24,953 nt of DNA from a virus, in IMG/VR virus record IMGVR_UViG_3300009155_000241, positions 1 through 24,953 of that record. One strand, 5' to 3'. Numbering within the stretch: the stretch's first letter is position 1; every line of letters begins with the position of its first letter. Shown piece by piece: positions 9,443 through 21,427 of the stretch. Under the pieces are notes generated by a model. The model was not told the DNA's origin. It searched no databases and saw only the letters and a list, made by a program, of their open reading frames with translations. A program made the translations under genes and the position numbers.

Positions 9443-9958
9443 TTACCCTAACATTCCCTCGGCAGCTTTCTTACCTTCTGCAACCCGATTAAGCCAGCCC
9501 TTGCCGAACGTAGGAAAATTAGTAAGGCTGCGATAAAAACTTTCTTTAGCTGCCGAGAAATTGTTAATAAAATCTTCTGCATTTGTATCTTGAATCGCCT
9601 TTACGGTTACGGGGCCAATGACACCATCGGCTGTTATTTTTAATGCACGTTGAATAGTTTTGATGCTACGAAACGCACCAGCATTGACAGCAAAATCAAA
9701 TGCAAGATAGTCAGCGCCGCTAGGAAGCTGGTCACCACGGACAGCATCCCAATATTCTTTCCGGTAGAGTGGCGAAACCATCTCTTTTGTGAGGCTACGC
9801 ATCTCTGCTTCATCAACTGGGTGTCCAACATATTCCTCCCAGACTCTTTGGGTTACGCCAAGATTCGTTCTTCCACCGGGGTCTGATGGATGATTGACAT
9901 ACCCGCCTTCGTGCTGCAAAACTAACGCAAGAGACTTCTCAAAGTTATTTTGCATCAT
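9443..9958 (-). CDS. Endolysin, GH108 family with C-terminal peptidoglycan-binding segment
   Basis: This lytic muramidase cleaves the peptidoglycan glycan chain at the end of infection. The GH108 signature EGGYVNHPSDPGGRTNLGVT spans residues 17-36, with E17 as the catalytic acid known for the family. ALKITADGVIGPVTVKAI (about 106-123) is the PG_binding_3-type segment usual for these enzymes. At 171 aa the length is typical. No signal peptide or SAR helix is present, so release must depend on a holin, and two candidates lie directly upstream. The start (MMQ) overlaps the upstream gene by 14 nt; M1 or M2 could initiate. Confidence 0.95.
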   Translation of the reverse strand: MMQNNFEKSLALVLQHEGGYVNHPSDPGGRTNLGVTQRVWEEYVGHPVDEAEMRSLTKEMVSPLYRKEYWDAVRGDQLPSGADYLAFDFAVNAGAFRSIKTIQRALKITADGVIGPVTVKAIQDTNAEDFINNFSAAKESFYRSLTNFPTFGKGWLNRVAEGKKAAEGMLG

Positions 9959-10166
9959 CTTCCTTAGAAAATTTTATACCCGCCAGAAGTCCTATAAAGC
10001 CGCCGATGATTGTCTGAAACGCTGGCCCAAGCAACTTAAATATATCTTCGTTGTTAACTTCTTTGTCAAACAAGCCAAAGCACAGGGCAAACACCATCCC
10101 CGCGATAACTATGCACAGTGTAAAACTTACCATCGTTGTAACCACAAAAGTTAATTTGTCGTTCAT
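9945..10166 (-). CDS. Two-span small membrane protein of the lysis cassette (possible holin or antiholin)
   Basis: The 73-aa product has hydrophobic spans at about 6-32 (TFVVTTMVSFTLCIVIAGMV and following) and about 45-65 (LLGPAFQTIIGGFIGLLAGI), joined by an acidic loop (DKEVNNEDIF), with a charged end (KFSKEDDAK). That is the topology of class II holins. It sits between the 3TM holin and the endolysin, overlapping both, so it may be a second holin or a regulator of hole formation. I cannot tell which from sequence. Confidence 0.7.
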   Translation of the reverse strand: MNDKLTFVVTTMVSFTLCIVIAGMVFALCFGLFDKEVNNEDIFKLLGPAFQTIIGGFIGLLAGIKFSKEDDAK

Positions 10167-10597
10167 CTGTTGCTCTCAGAACTTTTTATTTTCTCAACTG
10201 ACCGCATTGCCCCTAGACCCAACATACCCATCAAAATCTGAAGCGTTAAATCAGTGCTGATGACCGGAAACTCGCCCGTATACGCAAACCCGACTTTGGC
10301 GATAAACCTAGCAAACGGTTCAATCAGCGCGGCGTAGGCCAGCCCTGCTCCGCACACCCAGCCAATACCGGGTCGCCACCCTGCTACAAACCAATTCGTT
10401 GACTTAGCTTCTTCGACGTTTACCTGAAGTTGAAGTTTAGCTAAGTCAGTCTCAGACGCAAGTTTTGCAAGGTCGCCATTTTGCTGCATCTTCAGCAGTT
10501 CTAACTGAGCAGCGGCCTTCTTTTCAGGGTCAGGGAAGAACCGTTCTATCAACGACTCAGCAGCAGAGAACAGACCTGAAATCAGTAAAGGGTTCAA
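10163..10597 (-). CDS. Holin, GTA/3TM type, with TTG start
   Basis: The 144-aa protein matches the holin-of-three-TMs family: a charged amphipathic N-terminal half with a heptad-like stretch (QLELLKMQQNGDLAKLASET), then NWFVAGWRPGIGWVCGAGLA and a second hydrophobic part ending LLGLGAMRSVEKI-like (here MLGLGAMRSVEKI). WRPGIGW and GAMRSVEK are the most family-typical pieces. It would form inner-membrane lesions that release the endolysin. The start codon is TTG (10595-10597), overlapping the upstream stop as TTGA. Such a weak, coupled start would keep holin levels low. Confidence 0.85.
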   Translation of the reverse strand: MNPLLISGLFSAAESLIERFFPDPEKKAAAQLELLKMQQNGDLAKLASETDLAKLQLQVNVEEAKSTNWFVAGWRPGIGWVCGAGLAYAALIEPFARFIAKVGFAYTGEFPVISTDLTLQILMGMLGLGAMRSVEKIKSSESNR

Positions 10598-11115
10598 AAG
10601 TTACCGCCTACGGGGTTCAACACACCTACCGGCGCGTCAGTAACAATTTTAGCACCCGGCTTGATATGACCGTTGGTTGCTGGTGATTCGTTGATTGGGC
10701 CGTAGCAGGATGCAAGCATCACACCGTTTACTGGTTTGGCTTGCTTGTCGCAAAGGAATGACCACTGGTTCGACATACCGGAATCTTTGCCGAGGGTAAA
10801 TGATCGACTCACCAACGGAGCAACTGCCCACGAGGGCGCTTGTGGCGCTTCGCTCACAGTGGAAAACAGGCTCCACACTTTACCGGCAGGAGCGTCGCAT
10901 GAGTTATTCATCAGCGCACCGTTGGCTACGCTTCGGCCTTTCAGGATGGGGCAGACCGCCATGCCCTCTTGAAACACTTTACCCTTGACCGTTATTGTCT
11001 TGCCTGTAGGCGTAGAGCCACTGGCGGCGCACAGTGCATACTCACCGTTGCACATCATCAGGTCAGCAGCAGACACGCTTACTGGCAGCAGAGCGAGGAG
11101 AAATATCTTTTTCAT
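10594..11115 (-). CDS. Secreted six-cysteine protein in the lysis cassette, function unknown
   Basis: Residues 1-16 (MKKIFLLALLPVSVSA) form a clear Sec signal peptide with cleavage probably after VSA. There is no lipobox cysteine at +1. The mature part of about 157 aa holds six cysteines (MMC, ALC, AVC, NSC, FLC, ASC), enough for three disulfides in the periplasm. It is otherwise soluble and rich in small residues, with repeated turn sequences. It overlaps the TM/coiled-coil gene upstream (ATGA) and the holin downstream (TTGA), so it belongs to the lysis operon. It is not a recognisable spanin, endolysin or inhibitor. Possible roles are a periplasmic lysis factor, an inhibitor of host enzymes, or superinfection exclusion. 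Confidence 0.8.
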   Translation of the reverse strand: MKKIFLLALLPVSVSAADLMMCNGEYALCAASGSTPTGKTITVKGKVFQEGMAVCPILKGRSVANGALMNNSCDAPAGKVWSLFSTVSEAPQAPSWAVAPLVSRSFTLGKDSGMSNQWSFLCDKQAKPVNGVMLASCYGPINESPATNGHIKPGAKIVTDAPVGVLNPVGGNF

Positions 11116-11345
11116 TTGTCGGCCTTGTTTTCAAGTTTCTCAAATATCTTTGCCAGCATTGCTTTGATTTCCCTGATGTCCTCGCGGTAGTCATTTTTTG
11201 CAACGTATTCTTTCGGCAAGTCCTCGCGTAGTTTTACAAGGTCGGCTCGTAGTTCTTTGACCGCGCCCCACATCTCTCTTGCAAACCAGCCGCCAACCGT
11301 CATGCCAATGCCAAGAAACATGTTTATCAGATGCTGGTTTTCCAC
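11112..11345 (-). CDS. Membrane-anchored coiled-coil protein, 77 aa
   Basis: A short N-terminal hydrophobic stretch (INMFLGIGMTVGGWFA, about 7-22) is followed by a charged, heptad-patterned region (VKELRADLVKLREDL, then IREIKAMLAKIFEKLENK). This topology occurs in many unnamed phage lysis-region proteins and resembles a very short i-spanin, but at 77 aa it is too short to reach the outer membrane as Rz does. The start is GTG 11345 with TAAGGA 6-7 nt upstream. It ends in an ATGA overlap with the six-cysteine protein. Confidence 0.7.
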   Translation of the reverse strand: MENQHLINMFLGIGMTVGGWFAREMWGAVKELRADLVKLREDLPKEYVAKNDYREDIREIKAMLAKIFEKLENKADK

Positions 11346-11354
11346 TGTAATTCC

Positions 11355-11519
11355 TTATTGAACCGGAGCTTCGATACCGTCTGCGCCATTGGTTTTCACC
11401 TGCGGCTGCGCTTGTAATTGTATTTTCTGTATCAGCGGGGCGACTTGAGCAAAAGGCAGGGTACCCAGTGCTTGCAGGATACCGTTCACTTCATTTACAT
11501 CGAGTTCTAAGTTAATCAT
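11355..11519 (-). CDS. Small helical phage protein, 54 aa
   Basis: ATG 11519 overlaps the upstream stop as TAATG, and the frame ends at TAA 11355-11357. The sequence MINLELDVNEVNGILQALGT followed by LPFAQVAPLIQKIQLQAQPQ is a pattern I associate with a small family found next to tail-fibre and lysis genes in many phages, where its function is not known. The first strand (INLELDVNEV) and two helices look like a compact domain. The Asn/Gly/Pro-rich last 15 residues are probably disordered. Confidence 0.7.
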   Translation of the reverse strand: MINLELDVNEVNGILQALGTLPFAQVAPLIQKIQLQAQPQVKTNGADGIEAPVQ

Positions 11520-11701
11520 TACTTATCCCCTATCGGTTGAGTGGTGAGTAGACGCAAAATAACGATGCCCACCGAGATACCTATCCCGATAACCATTTGT
11601 GCTACCGGCGTCATCGGCAGCAAACCTATATAGCCCTGAACGATGGACAAGACTGCAATTAGAATCGCATACCAGACGGTTTTGCTTTTAAGCAGGTTCA
11701 T
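11519..11701 (-). CDS. Two-span small membrane protein, 60 aa
   Basis: I start at ATG 11701, which overlaps the tail-fibre stop as ATGA. The longer open frame upstream is an out-of-frame reading of the fibre gene. After a basic start (MNLLKSK) come two hydrophobic spans, about 9-27 (VWYAILIAVLSIVQGYIGL) and about 33-53 (AQMVIGIGISVGIVILRLLT), with a short LPMTP turn. This resembles small holin-like or accessory membrane proteins. With the 3TM holin and the 73-aa protein it makes three multi-span proteins in the cassette. Confidence 0.75.
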   Translation of the reverse strand: MNLLKSKTVWYAILIAVLSIVQGYIGLLPMTPVAQMVIGIGISVGIVILRLLTTQPIGDK

Positions 11702-13047
11702 TTGTTTTCCAGTGCTTCCACTTTTGCCATCAAAGCCTGAACGCAACCATAAAGCGCAGCAATCATCTGCCCGCCATTCAGGTCTAGGCAATCTTCGATT
11801 ACATCACCAATAGCCGGGGTAAACGGCTTAACAGATACCGCGTTTTTGAATACCTTTTGAACGTCTTGTGCTATCCAGCCGAGGTTGTGTTTGTCTTGAA
11901 TCTGGTCGTCGGTGTAAACGCCGGGAGCAAAGCCGAAGTGCTTTAGCGGGACTGACTTTACGATTTCATAGCAGCGGTTTAGGTTTGCGGGAACAATATT
12001 GGATTTAATGCGCTCATCTGATACGACTGTCCACAATCCACCAACACCGGGCTTGCCTGCGGAGTCTGTGACTATCTCCAGTTTGTAATTTGGGTCTGCC
12101 TTCCCGATGCCGACGTTGCCACTGCCTCGGATAGTTATGGCATCAACCTGATTGACGGATGAGGATTTTCGCACTCCAAGTATCAAATAACTGTTGACAT
12201 CATCATCAAGCGAAGTTATGTAATGCTCGGTAGGGCCACGCGAATAGATGCCTATACCAACATTTGCAGTTGTAACATCTCTAATGAGCAACCCTTTGCT
12301 TTCCCAATAACCGGTTGTTTGGTCTGCATGTTTTATGTCAAGGGTAGCACTCGGACTCGTCGTCCCAATCCCCAAGTTGCCTGAGGAGTCGAGGCGCAGT
12401 CTCTCTGTGCCAGCCGTACTAGCAGCAACCGTATCAGCAGCAGGGAACCACAGTCCGGTATCGGCTGTGCCGGTCGTAGATACGATGGCAGGAAGTGCTG
12501 CGCTACCTGCTGCGACAGTTGTTATGCCTGTAGCACTCAGCGTAGTAAACGCACCCGCAGCAGGAGTCGTAGCGCCTACTGTGCCGTTAAGAGCGCCAGC
12601 AAATTTAGTTGCTGAAAGGGAAGTGCCATCCCATGCTAACGCCGCCGCATCCGCAAGCAATCCAGCGGTGCTGGCAAATGTCACGCGGCCTGCGGTTAAA
12701 CCTGAGTCTGTGATGCTGGTTGCAGTTACTCCAGCCAGCGTAGTGGTGCCTGCAATATTTGCAGTCGTTCCAACAAACAACGCCTTTGCAACACCTACAC
12801 CGCCCGCCGTGATTATCGAGCCGGTTGTTGTGCTCGTGGAATCTGTAACCAGGCTGCTGTTGATGCCTGCGGCAAACGGTATCCTGGCTGTCGCAACCGT
12901 CTGGCCATCCTTTGTGATTGCCGTAGACAGGCCGGTGCCCAGATCCGCAGTTAAGGCGTTGAAAGCTGTTGATGAAATGACGGTGCCGGTGACGACCGGC
13001 TGGCCCGCGCTGTTGATGTTGAAAGTTCCTGAACCGTTGTAAGACAC
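11698..13047 (-). CDS. Tail fibre/spike with C-terminal S74 intramolecular chaperone
   Basis: This 449-aa protein is the best receptor-binding candidate. Residues 1 to about 200 are low-complexity Ala/Thr/Gly-rich beta-strand repeats (for example TTTGSIITAGGVGVAKALFV), as in trimeric phage fibres. LDSSGNLGIGTTSPSATLDI and GSGNVGIGKADPNYKLEI (about 215-330) are the pre-chaperone repeats common in S74 proteins. The S74 domain starts near 340 with SDERIKSNI, containing the Ser-Asp pair and downstream Lys of the self-cleaving endosialidase-type chaperone, and ends in a coiled coil (MIAALYGCVQALMAKVEALE). The start is GTG 13047 with GGAGGT 6 nt upstream. An antisense HNH gene separates it from the upstream virion genes. 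Confidence 0.88.
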   Translation of the reverse strand: MSYNGSGTFNINSAGQPVVTGTVISSTAFNALTADLGTGLSTAITKDGQTVATARIPFAAGINSSLVTDSTSTTTGSIITAGGVGVAKALFVGTTANIAGTTTLAGVTATSITDSGLTAGRVTFASTAGLLADAAALAWDGTSLSATKFAGALNGTVGATTPAAGAFTTLSATGITTVAAGSAALPAIVSTTGTADTGLWFPAADTVAASTAGTERLRLDSSGNLGIGTTSPSATLDIKHADQTTGYWESKGLLIRDVTTANVGIGIYSRGPTEHYITSLDDDVNSYLILGVRKSSSVNQVDAITIRGSGNVGIGKADPNYKLEIVTDSAGKPGVGGLWTVVSDERIKSNIVPANLNRCYEIVKSVPLKHFGFAPGVYTDDQIQDKHNLGWIAQDVQKVFKNAVSVKPFTPAIGDVIEDCLDLNGGQMIAALYGCVQALMAKVEALENK

Positions 13048-13100: not shown

Positions 13101-13664
13101 ATGACCTATCAATCCAGAGGAACAATTATTTGCGTTATTTGTAATACAGCCCCATCCATTGGACGTAAACTTTGCAGACCATGTTACAACCGAGCACGAA
13201 ATAATGGGACTTTGCATCAATTTGACCAGCTTGGCCCAAATGATGTTTTTGAATCTAGAATAAAAAAAACAAAAACTTGCTGGCTTTGGATTGGAACAAT
13301 AAATGATTACGGATATGGAATTTTTTTGTTGCCTGGTGAAATCCCAGTGCGAGCGCATAGATATGCTTATGAATTTTTTACTGGAAATAAAATACCATTT
13401 GGTAAAATAATTATGCACACTTGCGACAATCCTCCGTGTGTTAATCCAGCACATTTGCGAGTAGGAACAAAAGCGGAAAATAACGCCGATACATCGATAA
13501 AGCACCGCCATCATTACGGCATTCACCATTGGAACGGTAGATTGACTAATGCAGATATTACCAATATTCGCATTAGCAATAAAACGCAAAAAGAAATAGC
13601 GATTTATTTTAAAATAAGTCAATCTTATGTTTCCAGAATAAAAAGTGGCAATTATAGAAAATAA
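13101..13664 (+). CDS. Free-standing HNH homing-type endonuclease, inserted antisense
   Basis: This 187-aa protein has three parts. An N-terminal zinc finger uses C11, C14, C25 and C28. The HNH_3-type nuclease core runs from about 58 to 130, with RAHRYAYEFF and then IMHTCDNPPCVNPAHLRVGT, where H106, N115 and H118 supply the HNH residues. A C-terminal helix-turn-helix (about 148-184, KTQKEIAIYFKISQSYVSRI) binds DNA. It is the only plus-strand gene between 9443 and 24953 and is visibly AT-rich and lysine/isoleucine-rich compared with the fibre gene. Such genes spread by cutting uninserted alleles. ATG 13101 follows TAAGGAG. No strong promoter is seen upstream. Confidence 0.93.
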   Translation: MTYQSRGTIICVICNTAPSIGRKLCRPCYNRARNNGTLHQFDQLGPNDVFESRIKKTKTCWLWIGTINDYGYGIFLLPGEIPVRAHRYAYEFFTGNKIPFGKIIMHTCDNPPCVNPAHLRVGTKAENNADTSIKHRHHYGIHHWNGRLTNADITNIRISNKTQKEIAIYFKISQSYVSRIKSGNYRK

Positions 13665-19444: not shown

Positions 19445-19871
19445 GATTTGCTATCCTTTTGCTGTATCGTGTATTTAAAAACCGGCAGTCATCGCGGCGC
19501 AATGTGTAAAACACAATGTCGCCGTGTGGTCGCCCTTCCTTAATTCTGCCTTCTTCGGTAAATCCCATTTTCCTTACCACTTTGGCACTTTGTTCGTTAT
19601 CGCTTCCAACCGGGCAAATGATCTTTTCGACCTGGCAAATGTTATACGGATAATCAAATATTGCTGCCAAATAAGCCGGTGTCAATTGGCCTTCAATAGC
19701 GAAATGGCACCATATGCTTTGATGATTCCAATTCTCGTAAATGACTCCTGCAATAAGTTCATCATTTCGTTTTAATCCTAATGCGTTGGCTCTGGTTTCT
19801 AAAAACCCATAATTCACACGTTTTGCTACCCAATGGCCGACATCCGGCCCCGATACTATATCCCTGCCCAT
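19437..19871 (-). CDS. GNAT-family acetyltransferase
   Basis: The 144-aa protein has the GNAT fold order: an N-terminal helix, the strands ELIAGVIYENWN and IWCHFAIEG, then the acetyl-CoA-binding region (ICPVGSDNEQSAKVVRKMGF) with the typical N-x-x-S-x-x-x-x-x-x-x-G-F, followed by GRIKEGRPHGDIVFYTLRR. Such enzymes transfer acetyl groups to amines of proteins or small molecules. Here the gene lies inside the tail cluster, overlapping the nozzle by 16 nt and the Q-rich virion protein by 8 nt, so it is produced late. It may modify a virion or host protein; the target is unknown. GNAT genes at this place are known in several podovirus groups. Confidence 0.85.
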   Translation of the reverse strand: MGRDIVSGPDVGHWVAKRVNYGFLETRANALGLKRNDELIAGVIYENWNHQSIWCHFAIEGQLTPAYLAAIFDYPYNICQVEKIICPVGSDNEQSAKVVRKMGFTEEGRIKEGRPHGDIVFYTLRRDDCRFLNTRYSKRIANHG

Positions 19872-21427
19872 CCGGTCTGATAAACAACGTCAGTAGATGC
19901 CCACTCAATTTGCAGCCCGCTGCTTGCGCTTTTGAGCTGGATGGATCCGCAGTAACCAAGCCCGGTGACACCTTGCCAGTTGTTGGTAATTTGTAAACCA
20001 GATCCCCACAATGCAGAATCCCACGTTCCTGCATCCCATAATCCAACAGCAGATGCCGATGCGGAAATAGGCGCGGTTGTGTCATCAACGTTAAAATCTA
20101 CGTTGATGCCGACAAAAATAGCAGGTGCGCCGTTTGTAAATATGCTGGGCCGCGCCCTGGTGAAATACTTTTTCACGCCGCGGCTGTCAAAATAGTTAAA
20201 TGCTTGGAAAACATTTGTTGCAATATTTGATGTGTTATCTACGTAAGTGTCATCCCACGCCCTTACCACAACGCCGTTGCCGCCGTAATAAGGATTATCG
20301 TTGTAGGTTTCCCAACAATTTGCTGGCCAGCCTTGAAACTGTGCCCAGCTCGTTGTGATTGTGTTCATCACATACTGTTCTTGCTGGCCTTCTGCGATCG
20401 GCACATTGATCCACACAGCATTGCGACGAGCATTGTAGTAGACCTGCCACCCAACCGCGGCGTGCGTGCCGCCGTAGTTAGTTGTGGCCTGCGTAATGGC
20501 GCCTTGAATCTTGTTTGACAGCGCCACGCGAGGATCTAAGCGGGAAGATTGCAAGCTTTGAGCCATCGGCATCAAGCCGTCATACGTCAAGATCAGCAGA
20601 TCGCCGCCCCACTTCAGCATGGATCGGTTGCCGATTGGCGAGCCAAGTTTCCAAACTCCGGTCAGCGCCCAAGTAGCATCACTGGCCGGGTCGGTGCCTC
20701 GATAAACAATAACTTCACCGTTGCTGGTAACAAACACCAGATTGTCATCTACGCCATAGCCTGCATCAATCGTCCATGTATCCAGATCCACAAGATGCCC
20801 GCCAAATTTGGCAATAGCTGACAGATCCAAAACCTGCGCGGCGCCGCCGACTGCGCTGGTCGGCAGGTACCACGCCTTGAGCGTGTCTTTCTGAATAAAC
20901 CAAAGGCGATTCTTGAACAGCGTCACATTTGATAACGTTGTTGTCGTTACGCCGGTAATAGCTGGCGTTGAAGCAGCATCAATGGCGGTCCATGTTGTGC
21001 CATCGTACAACCGCGGCTTGTCCACGCCATTTACCGCATACAAATAAGTGCCGCCGGTCGTCGTAATGTTGATGTATTCCCAAATTGCGTTGGTTAAGCC
21101 GGTGACGCTAGTTGCTGTTGCAACGCCAGCGGTGCTGGCATCGTAGAATTTAAGATCAGGAGTCCCGACAGCGGCAAACATCTTGCTGCTGGTCCCGCCG
21201 TTGTAGACCATGATCGTCTGCACCTGGCCGGTCATGCCGGTAGCCCAATTCGTCGAACCACCTCGCAGCACGCAGTTGCTGACAGTCGGGAAGAAGTTAA
21301 TCAGTTGAACCGCATCCAGCGGCTCCATGTTGGCAATGCTGTCGCGGGCGTTCCAGCCGCCAACAGGAGCTGGAACAGACGCTACTCGCGCCGCATTGCC
21401 CTGCACCAGTTGGTTAATTTGGGCCAT
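19856..21427 (-). CDS. Tail nozzle/stabilisation protein (P22 gp10-like)
   Basis: This 523-aa protein begins VASVPAPVGGWNARDSIANM followed by EPLDAVQLINFFPT, the N-terminal signature of the phage stabilisation (P22 gp10) family, which forms the nozzle below the head-tail adaptor and holds DNA in the head. The remainder is beta-rich with recurring Trp/Gly/Asp blade-like segments (for example DLKFYDASTAG and VIVYRGTDPAS), consistent with a beta-propeller-like nozzle. Its order after the adaptor gene matches other short-tailed phages. It overlaps the adaptor gene by 14 nt. Confidence 0.85.
   Translation of the reverse strand: MAQINQLVQGNAARVASVPAPVGGWNARDSIANMEPLDAVQLINFFPTVSNCVLRGGSTNWATGMTGQVQTIMVYNGGTSSKMFAAVGTPDLKFYDASTAGVATATSVTGLTNAIWEYINITTTGGTYLYAVNGVDKPRLYDGTTWTAIDAASTPAITGVTTTTLSNVTLFKNRLWFIQKDTLKAWYLPTSAVGGAAQVLDLSAIAKFGGHLVDLDTWTIDAGYGVDDNLVFVTSNGEVIVYRGTDPASDATWALTGVWKLGSPIGNRSMLKWGGDLLILTYDGLMPMAQSLQSSRLDPRVALSNKIQGAITQATTNYGGTHAAVGWQVYYNARRNAVWINVPIAEGQQEQYVMNTITTSWAQFQGWPANCWETYNDNPYYGGNGVVVRAWDDTYVDNTSNIATNVFQAFNYFDSRGVKKYFTRARPSIFTNGAPAIFVGINVDFNVDDTTAPISASASAVGLWDAGTWDSALWGSGLQITNNWQGVTGLGYCGSIQLKSASSGLQIEWASTDVVYQTGWAGI

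What the first reader, a model, noticed from the sequence alone, without database searches (positions are those of the whole stretch)
10594..11115. Secreted six-cysteine protein embedded in the lysis operon
A clear Sec signal peptide and six cysteines point to an oxidised periplasmic protein, yet it is neither a lipoprotein nor a recognisable spanin, endolysin or inhibitor. It is translationally coupled to the holin (TTGA) and to a membrane coiled-coil protein (ATGA), so its dose is tied to lysis. It could be a new lysis factor for the outer membrane or periplasm, or a late-acting exclusion protein.
Basis: partly seen in the sequence, partly recalled or inferred. Interest (0 to 1): 0.6.

Follow-up and report, generated by a model that had tools for sequence, protein, structure and literature searches.

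The report
Secreted six-cysteine accessory protein of phages
Hundreds of uncultured, mostly aquatic phages carry an optional gene, usually slotted between their cell-bursting genes, for an exported protein with six invariant cysteines and a predicted shape unlike any solved structure; what it does in the host's envelope is unknown, but bursting does not appear to require it.

Summary
Window 10594-11115 (-) encodes a 173-aa protein with a Sec signal peptide, six cysteines and no lipobox, overlapping a membrane coiled-coil gene (ATGA) and a 3TM holin gene (TTGA). It belongs to a large unnamed phage family: 536 IMG/VR candidate stretches encode relatives, 206 distinct full-length sequences were aligned, and all six cysteines are invariant in 206/206. 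There is no match in Pfam, PHROGs, NCBIfam, PADLOC, PDB sequences, INPHARED phages or PLSDB plasmids, and none in about 1,390 bacterial species searches except phage-like contigs in one MAG. A deep-alignment AlphaFold2 model is confident (pLDDT 96, all-beta). It has no Foldseek match in the PDB; the only viral matches at E<=0.001 are one family member and one marseillevirus protein. The lysis-factor reading is weakened. Sister cassettes join coiled coil to holin with nothing between, 21 of 22 C6-less contigs carry no copy, and one carries only a C-terminal scar. The gene sits at three places in the cassette, with seven endolysin families, and sometimes far from lysis genes. Best reading: an accessory late periplasmic effector acting on a conserved envelope component to adjust lysis or yield; exclusion and lysis regulation remain rivals. 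Function is untested.

The parts
10594..11115 (-). Six-cysteine secreted protein (C6), 173 aa incl. signal peptide; the finding itself
   Evidence: family and invariant Cys; model
11068..11115 (-). Codons 1-16: Sec signal peptide MKKIFLLALLPVSVSA (predicted cleavage A16|A17)
   Evidence: sequence; pattern conserved in relatives, replaced by a TM anchor in about nine
10597..11067 (-). Codons 17-173: mature all-beta domain with Cys22, 29, 55, 73, 122, 137
   Evidence: AF2 with 118 sequences, pLDDT 95.9, pTM 0.90
11112..11345 (-). 77-aa membrane coiled-coil protein (XhlA-like by appearance), PHROG 462; its TGA overlaps the C6 ATG
   Evidence: the same gene abuts the holin directly in C6-less cassettes
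10163..10597 (-). GTA-type 3TM holin, 144 aa, TTG start overlapping the C6 TGA
   Evidence: PF11351 E=1.6e-23, PHROG 3427 E=3.5e-35
9945..10166 (-). 73-aa membrane protein of the lysis cassette
   Evidence: cluster 10; no convincing family match
9443..9958 (-). GH108 endolysin, 171 aa
   Evidence: PF05838 E=2.4e-28, PHROG 315 E=4.2e-50
11355..11519 (-). 54-aa small protein upstream in the cassette
   Evidence: no family match
11519..11701 (-). About 60-aa two-TM holin-like protein (likely start MNLLKSKTVW; longer ORF listed 11519-11791)
   Evidence: weak holin matches, E 0.03-0.18

Best explanation
An accessory, late-expressed periplasmic effector. SHOWN by computation: a phage family, found in the cellular genomes searched only on phage-like contigs of one MAG, with an export signal, six invariant cysteines and a confidently predicted compact beta fold without a match among solved structures; it is carried as an optional module among late genes, preferentially in the lysis cassette, and is independent of endolysin type. 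INFERRED: after Sec export and disulfide formation it acts in the periplasm on a conserved envelope component (peptidoglycan, lipid or glycan, or a conserved host envelope protein), not on a phage-specific lysis partner, and improves lysis completeness, timing or progeny yield without being required. The exact ligand is unknown.
For: Signal or membrane anchor in the aligned relatives, no lipobox in 206; six Cys invariant in 206/206. Purifying selection, dN/dS about 0.08, and at least 49% identity to the window protein across the family in phages with different cassettes, which suggests a conserved target. 87 of 112 well-flanked copies lie within 2.5 kb of an endolysin, from seven families, and 3 more near a holin only; one endolysin in a roughly 40-kb genome would give about 14% by chance (own estimate). 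At least 31 changes of context on the C6 tree (many branches weakly supported). Clean presence/absence at the coiled-coil/holin junction, a C-terminal scar in L414, and no copy elsewhere on 21 of 22 C6-less contigs. Membrane-anchored variants fit a site of action in the periplasm.
Against: No ligand, activity or phenotype is known; no cultured carrier was found. 22 of 112 well-flanked copies have no endolysin or holin within 2.5 kb (TerL 6, sugar genes 6, none 10), so a link to lysis is not universal. Late position alone cannot separate lysis tuning from other late roles.
Confidence: 0.42

Rival explanations
1. Superinfection exclusion: the protein waits in the periplasm and blocks DNA entry or tail-lysozyme action of competing phages late in infection.
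For: Periplasmic, accessory, mobile between phages, not tied to one endolysin family; also found away from lysis genes.
Against: Exclusion genes are usually expressed early, and proteins aimed at competitors usually diverge fast, whereas this family is strongly conserved; no PADLOC match.
Confidence: 0.25
2. Lysis-timing regulator working like T4 RI: a secreted protein that restrains the holin or the endolysin from the periplasmic side until triggered.
For: T4 RI is a periplasmic antiholin with a cleavable signal peptide (PMC8385771); C6 is also secreted and often directly precedes the holin.
Against: Occurs with several holin and seven endolysin families and at different distances from them; the cassette holin here is a small 3TM protein without the large periplasmic domain that RI binds; RI is helical (own knowledge) whereas C6 is all-beta.
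Confidence: 0.15
3. Essential outer-membrane disruptor replacing spanins.
For: No lipoprotein o-spanin is seen in the window or in 32 C6-carrying cassettes, so the outer-membrane step is unassigned.
Against: C6-less sister cassettes also lack an o-spanin and put nothing in its place (22 of 23 without any lipobox ORF); C6 also co-occurs with a possible i-spanin-like ORF (c35, identified by appearance; only weak PHROG hits) in some loci.
Confidence: 0.07
4. A product released at lysis that acts outside the cell, for example by coating debris or affecting neighbours or grazers.
For: Disulfide-rich proteins suit the outside; a structural relative exists in a marseillevirus.
Against: Membrane-anchored variants in about nine relatives argue for a task at the inner membrane or in the periplasm.
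Confidence: 0.1

Closest known systems
Uncharacterized protein A0A6J5QU59, uncultured Caudovirales phage (BFVD)
   Same: Same family: TM 0.95, 43% identity, E=3.2e-19
   Different: Deposited without function
Uncharacterized protein A0A481YSG1, Marseillevirus LCMAC101 (BFVD)
   Same: Partial fold similarity, Foldseek probability 1.00, E=7.4e-4, TM 0.53
   Different: Attributed to a virus of eukaryotes; 16% identity; sequence could not be fetched
Phage T4 antiholin RI
   Same: Periplasmic phage protein with a cleavable signal peptide (PMC8385771)
   Different: RI is small and helical (own knowledge) and binds the periplasmic domain of holin T; C6 is all-beta, six-cysteine, not tied to one holin
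Two-component and unimolecular spanins, disruptins
   Same: Phage late proteins acting between or on the membranes
   Different: C6 has no lipobox, no C-terminal TM, no coiled coil, and is absent from sister cassettes
Rhodoferax phage P26218 (TerL 45% identical to the window's)
   Same: Cultured freshwater podovirus with a GH108 endolysin and late genes in comparable order
   Different: No C6 match; has an unrelated secreted 169-aa protein (gp24) beside its lysis genes

Membership tests
o-spanin / u-spanin | Lipobox cysteine for outer-membrane attachment | tested here: not met
   0 of 206 relatives
o-spanin / u-spanin | Required component of the lysis cassette | tested here: not met
   Absent from sister cassettes and from 21 of 22 of their contigs; scar only in one
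Endolysin | Match to a peptidoglycan hydrolase family or fold | tested here: not met
   No Pfam/PHROG/NCBIfam match, no PDB fold match; a separate endolysin is present in most loci
T4 RI-type antiholin | Exported to the periplasm | tested here: met
   Signal peptide or anchor by sequence; not shown by experiment
T4 RI-type antiholin | Dedicated holin partner with a large periplasmic domain | tested here: not met
   Neighbouring holin is a 144-aa GTA-type 3TM protein; several holin families in relatives
Periplasmic lysozyme inhibitors (MliC/PliC/Ivy) | Sequence or fold match | tested here: not met
   No Pfam match, no PDB sequence or fold match
Superinfection exclusion proteins | Blocks infection when expressed | not testable with these tools
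   No sequence match in PADLOC; needs a plating assay
Bacterial protein captured by phages | Homologues on bacterial chromosomes | tested here: not met
   None in about 1,390 species searches except phage-like contigs in MAG G001; a sample only

The most novel reading that the evidence does not exclude
The founding family of a new protein fold and a new class of phage periplasmic effector that acts on a conserved part of the bacterial envelope, spread as a plug-in module among lysis cassettes and shared in fold with a giant virus.
Probability: 0.3. Interest if true: 0.75.

Novelty: new variant of a known kind. Interest (0 to 1): 0.5.

Why it matters
A conserved, widespread family that appears in none of the protein-family libraries searched, with a confidently predicted fold that has no solved counterpart, is a good target for a first structure. 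The natural presence/absence pairs and one natural deletion at a single gene junction make its role in lysis directly testable. These cassettes also lack recognisable spanins whether or not the gene is there, which leaves the outer-membrane step of lysis in these phages open.

Tried and rejected
(1) First AF2 run with 19 near relatives gave pLDDT 51; discarded in favour of the 118-sequence run. (2) A recollection that Legionella has related proteins was tested on 143 genomes of a Legionella-like (IcmQ-positive) family: none. (3) A weak hit in genome G257 was a chance match with five stops; other weak hits are short and mostly contain stops. (4) Spanin replacement: no lipoprotein in C6-plus cassettes and in 22 of 23 C6-less ones. 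(5) Plasmids and cultured phages with up to three divergent queries: no match. (6) PDB sequence profile hits (E 0.07-1) are chance. (7) ATGA at the C6 start was counted over relatives, but it mostly reflects the Met-Lys start, so it is not used as evidence of coupling beyond the window and the loci read directly. (8) Literature searches found no description of this family.

Full report
OBSERVATION. The ORF at 10594-11115 (-) is as described: 173 aa, a Sec signal peptide, six cysteines, ATGA overlap with the upstream 77-aa membrane coiled-coil gene and TTGA overlap with the downstream holin. The holin is a GTA-type 3TM protein (PF11351, PHROG 3427) and the endolysin at 9443-9958 is GH108. The window is an IMG/VR virus record of 24,953 bases. 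Its terminase is closest, at 45% identity, to Rhodoferax phage P26218, so a freshwater Burkholderiales host is plausible but not shown.

FAMILY. The protein has no match in Pfam, PHROGs, NCBIfam or PADLOC, in PDB sequences, or in cultured phages and plasmids, whether the window protein or divergent relatives are used. In IMG/VR, 536 candidate stretches encode relatives. Of these and further scans, 206 distinct full-length sequences were aligned: all six cysteines are invariant in 206/206, and identity to the window protein falls only to 49%. dN/dS is about 0.08, rough because dS is near saturation. No relative has a lipobox; about nine carry an N-terminal membrane anchor in place of the cleavable signal. 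In cellular genomes the only hits are contigs with phage late genes in one MAG, with nothing else credible in about 1,390 species searches, some genomes counted in more than one search.

STRUCTURE. With 118 sequences the mature domain is predicted at pLDDT 95.9 and pTM 0.90, all-beta. Foldseek finds no PDB match (best E=0.49, probability 0.07). In BFVD only two matches pass E<=0.001: an uncharacterised phage protein of the same family, and a 200-aa protein of Marseillevirus LCMAC101 (E=7.4e-4, probability 1.00, TM 0.53, 16% identity). A new fold is therefore likely but unproven; no AlphaFold DB of cellular proteins was available to check.

GENOMIC SETTING. Of 112 distinct copies with at least 2.5 kb on both sides, 87 have an endolysin within 2.5 kb and 3 more a holin only. 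The endolysins belong to seven clusters, identified by Pfam/PHROG searches of representatives and, for GH24, by appearance. The other 22 lie near the large terminase (6), near a WbpG/HisF-like sugar gene pair (6; names by appearance) or near nothing recognised (10). On the C6 tree the context changes at least 31 times, although many branches are weak. With one holin family alone, the gene stands before the holin, after it, or after the endolysin.

OCCUPIED AND EMPTY SITES. Starting from the window's holin rather than from C6, 45 of 80 loci contain C6. In many of the C6-less loci the coiled-coil gene runs directly into the holin (...GACAAATGAACCC...), while in the window clade the C6 gene lies exactly between them and the holin then starts with TTG (...GGTAACTTTTGAACCC...). 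In L414 the same junction holds only the last part of C6, in frame (ATGAGC, then ESPATNGHIKPGAKIVTDAPVGVLNPVGGNF, then stop): a natural deletion that has removed the signal peptide and all six cysteines. Whole-contig searches of 22 C6-less cassettes found no C6 elsewhere in 21 and only this scar in the other; contigs may be fragments. No lipoprotein candidate for an o-spanin was found in the window's lysis region, in 32 C6-plus cassettes, or in 22 of 23 C6-less ones, so C6 does not trade places with a spanin.

INTERPRETATION. These facts make C6 an optional, partner-independent, exported protein carried with late genes. The strong conservation across unrelated cassettes argues for a conserved target in the envelope rather than a fast-changing rival phage or one dedicated holin. 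The best reading is an accessory periplasmic effector that adjusts lysis or yield; exclusion, RI-like timing control and an extracellular role remain open in that order. The essential-lysis-factor idea is unlikely. Everything about activity is inference; no experiment exists.

NOVELTY AND INTEREST. Unknown phage families are common, which limits surprise. The combination of size, absolute cysteine conservation, an unmatched predicted fold and a ready-made natural knockout at one junction makes this one a better target than most.

Noticed in passing
window 9443-11800 and the holin-anchored loci: The lysis cassettes carry no recognisable lipoprotein o-spanin, with or without C6, so their outer-membrane step is unexplained.
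   Followed up: partly
window 13101-13664 (+): 187-aa ORF with an HNH-like motif (HTCDNPPCVNPAHL) on the strand opposite the late genes; looks like a homing-type endonuclease.
   Followed up: no
window 19856-21427 (-): PHROG 5107 labels this protein 'amidase' (E=3.7e-124) although it sits among structural genes; the label is doubtful.
   Followed up: no
L377 15489-15998 (-) (Rhodoferax phage P26218 gp24): An unrelated secreted 169-aa protein lies beside the lysis genes of the closest cultured phage, perhaps a second accessory secreted gene at this place.
   Followed up: partly
L214, L217, L224, L226, L228, L237: C6 lies between a WbpG-like sugar amidotransferase-like gene and a HisF-like gene, several of them in larger phages.
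   Followed up: partly
L163, L165: C6 is near a secreted DNA/RNA non-specific endonuclease (PF01223, E=4.2e-38 in L165) rather than near lysis genes.
   Followed up: no
holin start, window 10597 and L383-L434: In the window clade the C6 module leaves the holin with a TTG start where C6-less cassettes have mostly ATG, which may lower holin translation.
   Followed up: partly
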